From: Lysobacteraceae bacterium PS02340
Lineage (GTDB): Bacteria; Pseudomonadota; Gammaproteobacteria; Xanthomonadales; Xanthomonadaceae
NCBI GenBank assembly: GCA_029959605.1
Contig: JASCOC010000004.1
Coordinates: forward strand, 62,001-126,000
Direction of reading: 5' to 3'
DNA: 64,000 nucleotides
The translations under genes were made by a program, and so were the position numbers. Positions within the stretch are counted from its first letter, which is position 1; every line of letters begins with the position of its first letter. Below, piece after piece: positions 1,595 to 9,200 of this stretch. Under the pieces are notes generated by a model that did no database searches, was not told the DNA's origin, and was given only the letters and a program-made list of their open reading frames with translations.

Positions 1595-1719
1595 AGGCGG
1601 CGCACGCGTCGGAAGTCCCTGACTGGGGCGAACCCTAGATCGGGTGCGCCCCGGTGTCGTGGGCGCTGTGGGCGCGCTGGAATGGCGGCATTCAGATTCC
1701 ATCCAGCCAGGGGCCCACC

Positions 1720-2475
1720 GTGACCGACAACCTCAGCATCTCCGTTTCGCTCAGCATCAGCGGCCAGCTGCCGGCCGTGCAGAGCGCCGCCAGCACGCAG
1801 CGCACCGCCGACGGGCGCGTGCAGTTCGAAAACGAGAACTACCGCATCACCGCCGGCGACAACGACGAAGTCATCGTCTTCAACAAGGGCACCGGCGAGA
1901 ACTACCGCATCTGGGGCGACCCGCACGTCGAGATCGACGGCAAGCACGCCTTCGATTTCTGGGGCCAGACCACGTTCCAGCTCGACGACGGCACCAAGGT
2001 CACGATCGAGACCACGCCGTGGGCGCAGGGCGGCGACGGCGCGACGGTCGCGTCCGTCGTGACGATCACCGACGGCGACTACGGCGTGCAGATCAGCGGC
2101 GTCGACAGCAACACCCACGGCGATCTGTCGTTCCAGGAATTCGCCGGCGGCGGCCGCGTGCTCGATGCCGCGGTGCGCGACGGCAATGTGCTGCTGGAGA
2201 ACGAGAACGGCAGCGGCTTCATCGCCGTCGACCGCAACGGCAACATCCAGAACGTCGACCAGGCCTTCATTCTGGCAACCGACGAACTGAAGAACGGCGG
2301 GCCCGATTTCCTCGCCCACTTCGCCGAAATCTTCTCGTTCTTCACCGGCTTGATGGCGATCAGCTTCAACGGCAGCCTCGCGCTCGGAAGCGACAACCCC
2401 CAACGCGATCCCGAACCGACCGCACAGCCGGCCGCGCCGTGGCAGTTCAGCCTGACGCTGTCGATCAGCGCCTGA
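1720..2475 (+). CDS. DUF1521 (metal-inducible autocleavage) domain protein
   Basis: A 251-residue protein from a GTG start preceded by AGGGG (1709-1713, 6-base spacing); an in-frame GTG at 1654 would add 22 unlikely residues. Residues about 35-155 match DUF1521, with YRITAGDNDEV, GTGENYRIW and AFDFWGQTTFQLDDGTKVTI. It contains GDPHVEIDG with the D67-P68 bond. In rhizobial NopE1 and a Vibrio homologue, a GD/PH site in this domain is cut autocatalytically when calcium is added. No signal peptide or membrane segment is seen. The ends echo each other: LSISVSLSIS near the N-terminus and FSLTLSIS at the C-terminus. It is a lone gene facing sdaA. The domain call is firm, the biological role unknown. 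Confidence 0.8.
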   Translation: MTDNLSISVSLSISGQLPAVQSAASTQRTADGRVQFENENYRITAGDNDEVIVFNKGTGENYRIWGDPHVEIDGKHAFDFWGQTTFQLDDGTKVTIETTPWAQGGDGATVASVVTITDGDYGVQISGVDSNTHGDLSFQEFAGGGRVLDAAVRDGNVLLENENGSGFIAVDRNGNIQNVDQAFILATDELKNGGPDFLAHFAEIFSFFTGLMAISFNGSLALGSDNPQRDPEPTAQPAAPWQFSLTLSISA

Positions 2476-6281: not shown

Positions 6282-9200
6282 ATGCGTGTTGCAGGGATGA
6301 TGCTGGTGTGGCTGTGGTGCTGCCTGTCGGCCGGCGCCGCGTGGGCGCAGAACGGCCCGGTCACCGCCAGCATCCCGCAGCCGCGTCAGATCGGCGTGCT
6401 GGATGGGCTGCCGTCGAATCGTGTGAACGCCATCGCCGAAGACAGGCAGGGCTATCTGTGGATCGCCACGCGCGATGGTCTGGCGCGTTACGACGGCGTG
6501 GGCTTCCGGGTCTGGCGCGTCGAGGACGGCCTCGGCGACAACTACGTCTGGGCGGTGCACGTCGATGCGCAGGACCGCGTCTGGGTCGGCACGCGGCGGG
6601 GTGGCCTGTCGATGCTCGACGCGAAGCGCACCACGTTCACCCGTTACAACCACGACACCCACGCCGAGATCGGTGTCGACGACGTCTGGGCCGTGATGTC
6701 GACGCCGGATGGGGCGATCTGGTTCGGAACCGCCGAGTCGGGTCTCTACCGGCTCGCGCCCGATGGCGGACTTCAGCGATTCCGATCGGATCCTGACGAC
6801 CCGCGCAGCCTGCCGGCGGATGGCGTCAGCTACATCGTGCCTGCCGCCGAAGGCGCGCTGTGGATCGGCACGAAGAACGGTGCCGCGCGCTGGAACGGAC
6901 GCGATTTCGAACCTGTTCCGTCGCCTGCAGAGGCCAGCCGCATGGTCAATGGTCTGGTGATCGATACGGCTGGCGATCTGTGGATCGGTGCGCAGGGCGG
7001 TGGTGTCGTGCGGCGCGCGGACGGCCGGGTCGAAATGATGCCGGAGGTCGATCCGGTGATGCGTGCGCCCGTGCTGCACATGCTCGTCCAGGATCGCCAG
7101 GGCATGCGCTGGTTCGACACGCGCAGCGGCCTCGCGCGTGAGGTGGAGGGTCGGCTCGATGACGTGCCGCTCTACAGCTTCGCCAGTCGGGGACCCGTGC
7201 GACCGTCGTGGTCGTCGGGCTTCCAGGATCGCGAAGGGGGGCTCTGGTTCGCGAGTCTGGATGCGGGGCTTTGGTACCTCCCGGCGAACTGGCGCAATTT
7301 CACCGTGTTGCAGCGCCGCGTGCTGGACCCGACCACACCTGCGAATGCGTTCGTGCATGGGGTCGCACGGGCTGCCGACGGAGGCTTCTGGCTTGTCGGC
7401 AATGGTGGGGTTCTCGATCACCTGGATCCGGTCACGGGCGTCGTCGAACACCGCCTCTCCGAGGTGTGTGGGAGCGAGCCAAACCGCAGTGTCCACGAGA
7501 CCGATGCCGGTATCGTCTGGATCGGCTGCCTTCGGCAACTGGTGCGCTTCGATCCGGCGAGTGGCGATGTGCGGCGCTGGTACCAGGACGATGAGGACGC
7601 GCCGGCGCCGAGTGGTCAGCACACCGACAGCATCGTCGAACAGCGTGACGGCACGGTCTGGTTCGCCAGCGACCACGAGGTGCAGGCGCGCGCCCCGGAT
7701 GGACGTCTGATCGAATCGATCCGGGCAGGCGATGGCCATGGCATTCCGTCGCTGGCGCGGCCGATGACCATCGCGCAGGCGCCTGACGGCAGCGTCTGGC
7801 TCGCCACCACACGTGGCATCTATGCGTGGAAGACCGGCACCCGCACCTTCGAACCCGTGCCCGGCGCACCCCAGCGCACGATCAGTGCGATCACCCAGCA
7901 GGGAGCGGACACCGTCTGGCTGGCGGGGCCCGGGACACTGGAGGCCTACCATTGGAATGGCGCGCTGCTGACCCGGCAACTCGCCTTCGGTCGTGCGAAC
8001 GGACTGCCGCAGGTGATGCCTGGCGGTGTCGCCGTCGACGCCAGTGGGACGGTCTGGATCACCACCGTACGCGGACTGGTGCGTCTGGATCCAACGACAT
8101 CCCGCATCCGCGTCTACGGCGTGCACGACGGCTTGCCCAGCCAGGAATTCAGCGAACAGCACATCGGTGTGTCACGCGATGGCCACTTCGCGGTGGGAAC
8201 CGGCGAGGGCCTGTTGCTGTTTCATCCAGCCGACGTGCATCGACGCGACGAGACCCCGCCACTGGTGATCGAGTCGATCGATCTGCGCCGCGACGACGAT
8301 GAGCTCGAGCTTGCGCCCTCGGGCCCGATCGAGCTGCGTCACGGCGACCGGGATCTGCGCGTGGTCGCGCGCCTGCTGTCGTTCACGGATGCGCATGCCC
8401 ATCACTATCGATTCCGTCTGGACGGCTACGAGTCGGAATGGGTGGATGCGGACGTCACCGCGGAACGTGTGTTCCCGCGGCTCGAGCCCGGGCGGTACAC
8501 CCTGCACGTGGAAGCGCGGACGGAAGACGGCGAGTGGACCACACTGGCCCCGCTGACCATTCGCCAGGCGCCGCCGTGGTGGCGCACGATCTGGGCGCTG
8601 CTGGGATTGCTGCTGCTCGCAGGTGTCGTGCTGTGGTGGGGGGCCCGTGCCTACCGGACGCGCCTCAAGCGCCGCCATGCCTGGCAGCTCGCCGAGGACA
8701 AGCGCAGCCTCGCCGAGCAGGCCTCCCTCGCGAAGACGCGCTTTCTCGCCACGCTGGGCCACGAGGTCCGCACACCGATGACCGGTGTGCTGGGCATGAG
8801 CGAGCTGCTGCTCCACACCTCTCTCGATCCACGCCAACGCGGCTATGCCGAATCGATCCGCCGCGCGGGTGATCACCTGATGCGTCTGGTCAACGACGCA
8901 CTCGATCTCGCCCGCATCGAAGCCGGCAGGCTCGAGCTCGATCCCCAACCGTTCGAGGTCGCGCGGCTGGTGCAGGACGTCGTCGCGATGTGCGCGCCGA
9001 TCGCGCGACAGAAGTCGCTGGGCTTCGACGTGGTCATCGACCCGTCCGTGCCTGCGTGGGTGCTCGGCGATCCCGGGCGCGTGCGCCAGATCCTGCTCAA
9101 TCTGCTGGGCAACGCGGTCAAGTTCACCGAGACCGGCCGGGTCGGGCTGCATGTGGACGTCGATTCCGCCGGGGCGCTGTGTTTCGTCGTCACCGACACG

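What the first reader, a model, noticed from the sequence alone, without database searches (positions are those of the whole stretch)
1720..2475. Lone DUF1521 protein with an intact candidate GD/PH self-cleavage site
The protein carries GDPHVEIDG with the D67-P68 bond in a DUF1521 domain. In characterised members (rhizobial NopE1, a Vibrio homologue) calcium or other metals trigger cutting at GD/PH. Here it stands alone, lacks a signal peptide and type III context, and has matching LSIS-type ends (LSISVSLSIS and FSLTLSIS), which could be secretion or assembly tags.
Basis: partly seen in the sequence, partly recalled or inferred. Interest (0 to 1): 0.72.

Follow-up and report, generated by a model that had tools for sequence, protein, structure and literature searches.

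The report
Self-cutting candidate type III secretion protein
A bacterium close to Luteimonas carries a protein that probably cuts itself in two when it meets calcium after leaving the cell through a molecular syringe, and its cutting domain looks like a stripped-down relative of the self-cutting domains of animal mucus proteins.

Summary
Window 1720-2475 (+) encodes a 251-aa DUF1521 protein (E 4e-32) with GDPH at residues 66-69 inside the domain; the gene is under purifying selection in a Luteimonas-like genome.

Two parts of the reading change. (1) The gene stands alone locally but has type III context. The genome carries a non-flagellar type III secretion system (contigs C36, C26). A conserved box starting 97 bp before the gene recurs in the T3SS regions of four Luteimonas genomes. 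Of 48 DUF1521-carrying genomes tested, 47 have a T3SS-type SctV by score or alignment pattern. I read it as an orphan T3SS substrate. (2) The domain, called disordered and EF-hand-like in print, is predicted mainly beta. Its best-ranked solved matches are von Willebrand type D (VWD) domains of mucins, VWF and RGMB, with GDPH on the motif that self-cuts in FCGBP. Profile comparison agrees (95%), and in the larger alignment not by the motif alone. Structural Z-scores are moderate (4.1-5.8), so common ancestry is likely, not proven.

Cleavage and secretion were not tested. The LSIS ends are predicted disordered; the N-terminal one is a plausible secretion signal, the C-terminal one unexplained. 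No paper found in the open library joins DUF1521 with VWD.

The parts
1720..2475 (+). DUF1521 (MIIA-type) protein, 251 aa, GTG start, no cysteine
   Evidence: purifying selection
1623..1658 (+). conserved quasi-palindromic upstream box CTGGGGCGAACCCTAGATCGGGTGCGCCCCGGTGTC, shared with T3SS regions
   Evidence: aligned in 10 Luteimonas; recurs in T3SS regions of four genomes
1677..1702 (+). second conserved non-coding stretch between box and start codon, role unknown
1720..1776 (+). N-terminal tail, residues 1-19, with LSISVSLSIS; residues 1-14 predicted disordered; candidate T3SS secretion signal (inference)
   Evidence: pLDDT under 50 for 1-14; pattern kept in close relatives
1780..2289 (+). 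predicted folded domain, residues 21-190, mainly beta, VWD-like by comparison
   Evidence: second member
1915..1926 (+). GDPH, residues 66-69; predicted scissile bond D67-P68; lies between two predicted strands (61-65 and 69-72)
2446..2469 (+). C-terminal FSLTLSIS, residues 243-250, in a low-confidence tail

Best explanation
The gene encodes an orphan substrate of the genome's own type III secretion system that self-cleaves. Inside the bacterium the domain stays unfolded for lack of calcium (inferred from the Vibrio relative) and is exported by its N-terminal signal (inferred). Outside, calcium folds it into a VWD-like domain that holds G66-D67-P68-H69 in a turn between two strands. There the D67 side chain attacks its own backbone carbonyl, helped by H69 (inferred from FCGBP), and the D67-P68 bond breaks. 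This separates the 67-residue N-terminal piece, with the export signal, from a 184-residue C-terminal piece. Shown here: intact motif, domain membership, predicted fold, T3SS in the genome, shared upstream box. Inferred: secretion, calcium trigger, cleavage, regulation through the box, and the role of the released piece.
For: DUF1521 E 4.3e-32. D116A in the GDPH of the Vibrio MIIA domain blocks cleavage; Ca2+ and Mn2+ but not Mg2+ give folding and activity (PMC6506597, passages, Introduction). T3SS in own genome: SctV 723.7 bits over the cut-off 692.25; on the same contig SctT, SctR and SctQ over their cut-offs, SctD and SctJ a little under; on C26 an SctN-type ATPase (FliI/YscN family over the cut-off, SctN model 592 against 604.75) and an SctL-like protein under its cut-off. 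Of 48 carrier genomes (48 of the 80 loci given), 20 are over the SctV cut-off, 27 have a split-alignment hit, 1 is ambiguous. Six of the 27 split hits were fetched and all six lie among further T3SS-like genes. T3SS-like genes lie within the held flank (up to 8 kb) of DUF1521 in 34 of 80 loci (BLAST, flagellar paralogues not excluded one by one). A matrix built from ten DUF1521 upstream boxes scores 18.4 (own), 31.9, 28.3 and 23.2 in four T3SS regions, against a best of 8.6 in ten Markov sequences of 96 kb. VWD-like: the first 8 rows from 979 chains for one model and the first 21 rows from 986 chains for a second member are VWD proteins; profile comparison 95.4% with controls. FCGBP D4080A/N and H4082N block cleavage (PMC10880436).
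Against: No cleavage, secretion or expression data exist here for this protein. The gene is about 1.1-1.2 Mb from SctV in two single-contig relatives. T3SS and DUF1521 within Luteimonas are not significantly linked (9 of 9 against 20 of 28, p 0.08). Structural Z values (4.1-5.8) are below 8; Foldseek alone gives no match with E at or below 0.001. Pfam VWD does not match the protein. The place of FCGBP Q4094, which matters partly for cleavage there, is mostly W, Y or K here. Motif masking leaves little in the smaller alignment (4-6%). The short palindrome at up to one mismatch is not enriched genome-wide over its reversed control (37 against 43), and the divergent G013 has only weak boxes (11.9 and 11.4).
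Confidence: 0.66

Rival explanations
1. DUF1521 is unrelated to VWD. A short GDPH turn with a following aromatic hairpin arose twice, and the modest structural matches are a common beta arrangement.
For: Z under 8. Best Foldseek E is 0.014 and 0.072, to other folds; VWD chains appear in the second list only from E 0.26 and not in the first 50 of the first list. The smaller alignment loses the signal when the motif is masked (A5: 4-5.6%). No cysteines in the window protein. The first four rows align in another strand register.
Against: VWD proteins fill the top ranks for two different members, RGMB included for the second. With the motif masked, A3 still aligns in the same register (37-40%, P about 3e-4), while 30 column shuffles reach 0.6% at most and 30 shuffles keeping the motif reach 77.2% against 95.4%. 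FCGBP, a many-VWD protein, is the only molecule above noise for the family profile among PDB sequences.
Confidence: 0.25
2. The protein is not a type III substrate in this organism. It is a domesticated or relic copy acting in the cytosol or exported otherwise, and the shared box reflects another regulator.
For: Not linked to T3SS genes in Luteimonas; fixed place between a homoserine-dehydrogenase-like gene and a serine deaminase gene (named from its sequence, recalled) in 10 of 14 loci tested.
Against: Box shared with T3SS regions; SctV over the cut-off in all 9 Luteimonas carriers and T3SS-type SctV in probably 47 of 48 carriers tested; no sign of relaxed selection among close relatives.
Confidence: 0.25
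3. The LSIS-type ends are assembly tags: alternating strands that pair into a sheet or fibre and hold the two cleavage products together.
For: Alternating pattern at both ends in close Luteimonas relatives; a box-preceded small protein of the T3SS region ends in FNFNFNIGGK.
Against: Both ends have pLDDT under 50; as I read the ends printed, the pattern is not kept in most relatives outside Luteimonas.
Confidence: 0.12
4. The motif is intact but silent; the domain is now a calcium-binding or scaffold domain only.
For: Three Sphingomonas relatives lack GDPH, so the family keeps the domain without it.
Against: GDPH and most residues around it are invariant in the 9 Luteimonas copies.
Confidence: 0.15

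Closest known systems
NopE1/NopE2 of Bradyrhizobium (DUF1521, T3SS-secreted, calcium-dependent autocleavage)
   Same: DUF1521 family; 31% identity over 96% of the protein to Bradyrhizobium plasmid copies annotated DUF1521 (NopE1 itself not compared); GDPHV site; T3SS in the genome
   Different: One domain, short N-terminal tail, extra C-terminal tail of about 60 residues; gene far from the T3SS cluster
MIIA domain of VIC_001052, Vibrio coralliilyticus
   Same: GDPH site; D needed for cleavage there (PMC6506597)
   Different: VIC_001052 lies in its T3SS gene cluster and is described as disordered without calcium, with EF-hand-like loops; here a mainly beta domain is predicted
VWD domains with GDPH autocleavage (FCGBP, MUC2 D4, RGMB)
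   Same: GDPH in a turn between two strands; profile match over 52 columns; top-ranked structural matches
   Different: Bacterial, no cysteine here, no companion VWF-type domains seen, extra strands before the motif, below Pfam VWD detection
ITIH heavy chains (GDPH in a VWD-like domain, as noted in PMC10880436)
   Same: Another GDPH-bearing domain outside the annotated VWD family
   Different: Animal secreted proteins; not compared here

Membership tests
DUF1521 (PF07481) | score over the curated cut-off | tested here: met
   111.9 against 23.6 bits
DUF1521 / MIIA | intact GDPH site in the domain | tested here: met
   residues 66-69
DUF1521 / MIIA | metal-triggered cleavage at D-P | not testable with these tools
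   needs purified protein
MIIA-type type III substrate | T3SS in the genome | tested here: met
MIIA-type type III substrate | gene within the T3SS cluster | tested here: not met
   no T3SS gene found in nine 20-kb Luteimonas loci, own included; over 1 Mb apart in two single-contig genomes
MIIA-type type III substrate | shared upstream element with T3SS genes | tested here: met
   function of the element untested
MIIA-type type III substrate | exported by the T3SS | not testable with these tools
   needs a secretion assay
VWD (PF00094) | Pfam VWD match | tested here: not met
   no VWD row at E up to 10
VWD (PF00094) | VWD fold | tested here: inconclusive
   top-ranked but Z 4.1-5.8
VWD (PF00094) | GDxH-type motif at the start of the domain, between two strands | tested here: met
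   register arithmetic
VWD (PF00094) | conserved disulfide cysteines | tested here: not met
   no Cys in the window protein; none in 45 of 70 aligned rows

The most novel reading that the evidence does not exclude
DUF1521/MIIA and the animal VWD domain are one homologous autoproteolytic domain. A cysteine-poor, calcium-folded bacterial form travels through type III secretion systems, and an extracellular disulfide-stabilised form builds mucins, VWF and RGM signalling proteins. Both branches contain cutting members and members that keep the domain without GDPH.
Probability: 0.55. Interest if true: 0.82.

Novelty: new variant of a known kind. Interest (0 to 1): 0.64.

Why it matters
The MIIA paper calls the structure of this cutting domain unexplored and its mechanism unknown (PMC6506597), and the mechanism of GDPH cleavage in VWD domains is still discussed as open (PMC10880436). 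If DUF1521 is a VWD-like domain, a small cysteine-free protein, probably switchable with calcium, becomes a model in which uncut and cut states can be compared, a pair of structures that PMC10880436 says is missing. The upstream box also gives a way to look for T3SS substrates far from the secretion cluster in Luteimonas.

Tried and rejected
EF-hand reading: Pfam EF-hand models match at most 6 of 70 members, best E 0.019 (25 of 56 families shown), and not the window protein, so EF-hand is not supported here.

Pepsin: one-sequence phmmer against the PDB ranked a pepsin first (E 0.0028) and FCGBP third (E 0.076). The family profile does not find pepsin, so it was set aside as chance, as were the photosynthetic reaction centre matches to the tail.

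Phage origin: no match in phages and none in viral contigs. A VWD scan of viral contigs confirmed none.

VWD in Pseudomonadota: PF00094 in 0 of 299 genomes, but it also rang in no control genome, so this says little. A VWD search in another phylum was not done.

T3SS association by counting hrcV hits in a Sphingomonas genus: at least three hits in 13 of 14 carriers and 16 of 137 non-carriers (p 4e-10). Split alignments count as two hits and the place list was cut off, so this is a crude proxy. Limnobacter (G740) has a 684-bit hit beside only SctR- and SctS-like genes and may be flagellar.

Box: three other exact matches of the short palindrome in the own genome (C5, C13, C33) lie in 3-kb stretches where I recognised no T3SS gene by eye. 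The own SctV contig C36 holds no box.

Literature: in the open library. No paper there holds NopE1 together with von Willebrand. Two key NopE1 papers are not held, so a remark in them cannot be excluded.

Full report
What is there. Window 1720-2475 (+) encodes 251 aa from a GTG start. The start is backed by relatives that begin at the aligned codon. DUF1521 matches residues 39-184 at E 4.3e-32. GDPH is residues 66-69. The protein has no cysteine. The gene lies between a homoserine-dehydrogenase-like gene and a gene I name serine deaminase from its sequence (recalled). That setting is kept in 8 of nine 20-kb Luteimonas loci (own included) and in L022 and L026, 10 of the 14 loci tested. Its nearest named relative is Luteimonas sp. 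9C at 96%. dN/dS with six close relatives is 0.10-0.23, and 0.70 with the divergent L009.

How common. DUF1521 is found in 9 of 61 genomes searched as own and relatives, all 9 in the own genus (9 of 37 there, own genome included), and in 1 of 369 genomes drawn from the class, that one being the own genome. A scan of genome contigs found 163 relatives and kept 80, among them Luteimonas, Sphingomonas, Sphingobium, Thiodiazotropha, Methylobacterium, Bradyrhizobium and Sulfidibacter. Plasmid copies are in Bradyrhizobium (11 of 12 records) and Bosea (1 of 12), the Bosea one beside T3SS genes. None was found in phages or viral contigs.

Type III context. The own genome has SctV over the curated cut-off on contig C36. 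On that contig SctT, SctR and SctQ are over their cut-offs, SctD and SctJ a little under, and there is a FixJ/FixL-like two-component pair. C26 has an SctN-type ATPase and an SctL-like protein, both under the cut-offs of the T3SS-specific models. All 9 Luteimonas carriers have SctV over the cut-off, as do 20 of 28 non-carriers (p 0.08). Of 48 carrier genomes (48 of the 80 loci were given), 20 are over the cut-off. Another 27 have an SctV hit split at about profile positions 390-480, and one (Limnobacter) is ambiguous. Six of the 27 were fetched and all six hits sit among further T3SS-like genes. By BLAST, T3SS-like genes lie within the held flank (up to 8 kb) of DUF1521 in 34 of 80 loci, in none of the 10 Luteimonas loci among those 80, and in none of nine 20-kb Luteimonas loci, in part the same genomes; flagellar paralogues were not excluded one by one. 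In two single-contig Luteimonas genomes the gene is about 1.1-1.2 Mb from SctV.

Shared box. Ten Luteimonas upstream regions share a block whose window copy is at 1623-1658. A matrix from those ten was run over T3SS regions, which were not used to build it. It scored 31.9 in G008, 28.3 in G011, 23.2 in G035 and 18.4 in the own genome (C26 4352). Ten Markov sequences of 96 kb reached 8.6 at most. In nine 20-kb Luteimonas loci and the window, the best place away from the box was 9.8, and the box's own opposite strand reached 12.9. In the own genome and G008 the box stands before small glycine-rich genes that look orthologous (the G008 gene read by eye). Against: the divergent G013 scores only 11.9 in its T3SS region and 11.4 upstream of its DUF1521 gene. 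The short palindrome is not enriched genome-wide at up to one mismatch (37 against 43 for the reversed control), and C36 has none. So the link rests on the long form of the box.

Fold. AlphaFold2 on the window protein with 69 other rows gives a confident, mainly beta domain (residues 21-190, blocks of pLDDT 84-97) and disordered ends. A second model, of a Methylobacterium member with 41 other rows, gives pLDDT 90 and pTM 0.84. Foldseek gives no match with E at or below 0.001 for either. In the VIA second look, the first 8 rows from 979 chains are VWF or mucin entries, Z 5.7-4.8, with a centriole protein next at 4.6. For the second model the first 21 rows from 986 chains are VWF, mucin or RGMB entries, RGMB at 4.7 and 4.1, with the same centriole family next at 4.1. 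By the tool's own warning Z below 8 may be a common arrangement and rows within 1 are tied, so I call the fold test inconclusive by itself.

Register. In one search, MUC5AC rows pair model residue 60 with 901 or 58 with 899, and the MUC2 row pairs 57 with 855. In one search rows pair 59 with 899 (MUC5AC) and 58 with 855 (MUC2). One search places the first VWD residue of the FCGBP query, a cysteine, at chain position 876 of a MUC5AC construct titled residues 28-1483 and at 840 of a MUC2 construct titled 21-1397. The motif glycine four residues on is then 907 and 864. In these rows both models put their own GDPH glycine on exactly these numbers, if constructs have no N-terminal tag and the start of the alignment has no gap. 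Other rows, among them the first four, align in a different register.

Sequence. A profile of the family finds only FCGBP, a protein with many VWD domains, above noise in the PDB sequences: E 1.9e-8 and 0.0033 for two FCGBP chains, and 2.6e-10 and 0.0006 with the next row at 0.1. These E-values sum several domains; the best single stretch has E 3.6 and 1.7. Profile-profile comparison with seven FCGBP VWD fragments gives 95.4% over 52 columns for the larger alignment and 87.3% for the smaller, with GDPH on GDPH. Masking the motif lowers these to 37-40% and 4-6%, in the same register. Thirty full column shuffles reach 0.6% and thirty that keep the motif reach 77.2%. The FCGBP fragment used is Pfam VWD positions 1-68. 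The window protein itself has no Pfam VWD match.

Chemistry. In FCGBP, D4080A, D4080N and H4082N stop cleavage and Q4094 changes reduce it (PMC10880436); [quoted passage not shown] Of that paper I read the abstract and outline, the first part of Results, section 2.7 and the Discussion; the word bacteria does not occur in it. In the Vibrio MIIA domain D116A stops cleavage and Ca2+ or Mn2+ induce folding (PMC6506597, passages and Introduction); it treats the metal-free domain as disordered and models EF-hand-like loops. In Bradyrhizobium an uncleavable NopE1 does not raise nodulation as the wild type does (PMC8367979, passages). D and H are conserved here; the Q4094 place is not.

Non-cutting twins. 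Three Sphingomonas genomes carry a second DUF1521 ORF whose motif place reads WGAGNI, WGAAMI or WGDEAA. They score as family members, and one lies in a T3SS region. VWD proteins likewise contain members without GDPH (11 of 13 FCGBP VWD domains have it; abstract).

The ends. Residues 1-14 and 228-251 have pLDDT under 50. The N-terminal alternation is kept in close Luteimonas copies and blurred in L009. It is a plausible secretion signal, but no predictor was available. The C-terminal pattern is unexplained.

Verdict. An intact member of a known self-cutting family, probably an orphan type III substrate. The main new point is the likely kinship of that family with VWD domains, which the literature searches made here did not find stated.

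Noticed in passing
L170:7208-8557, L171:6129-7202, L172:886-2076: DUF1521 relatives in Sphingomonas genomes that keep the domain but lack GDPH; L172 lies in a T3SS region. Natural non-cutting twins.
   Followed up: partly
L147:4517-4744 and L148:15699-15923 (-): Small glycine-zipper-like protein of the Luteimonas T3SS region, preceded by the shared box and ending in FNFNFNIGGK or (read by eye) FNFNFGVGN; possibly a secreted or pore component.
   Followed up: partly
L123:3707-5803: FixJ/FixL-like two-component pair inside the own T3SS cluster; candidate regulator acting on the shared box.
   Followed up: no
L147:7853-9364 (-): Pro/Ala/Gln-rich ORF with hydrophobic stretches near its C-terminus and a short-form box near its start; unknown protein of the T3SS region.
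   Followed up: no
L147:6485-6500 and 6651-6995: One-mismatch copy of the short box before a 114-aa ORF with a very weak match to a T3SS needle family (E 0.025).
   Followed up: no
L152:1501-1516: Perfect CTAGGGN4CCCTAG palindrome before a small lipoprotein-like gene on contig C13; possible further member of the box's regulon.
   Followed up: no
L175:1037-2022 (-): Frame-broken DUF1521 copy in one Sphingomonas genome (G838), seen as two pieces.
   Followed up: no
C-termini in L033, L038, L049, L051, L053, L068-L071: DUF1521 proteins of Thiodiazotropha-like and other genomes end in short Trp patterns such as DWSWNK, NWNWDR or NWTLNR; function unknown.
   Followed up: no
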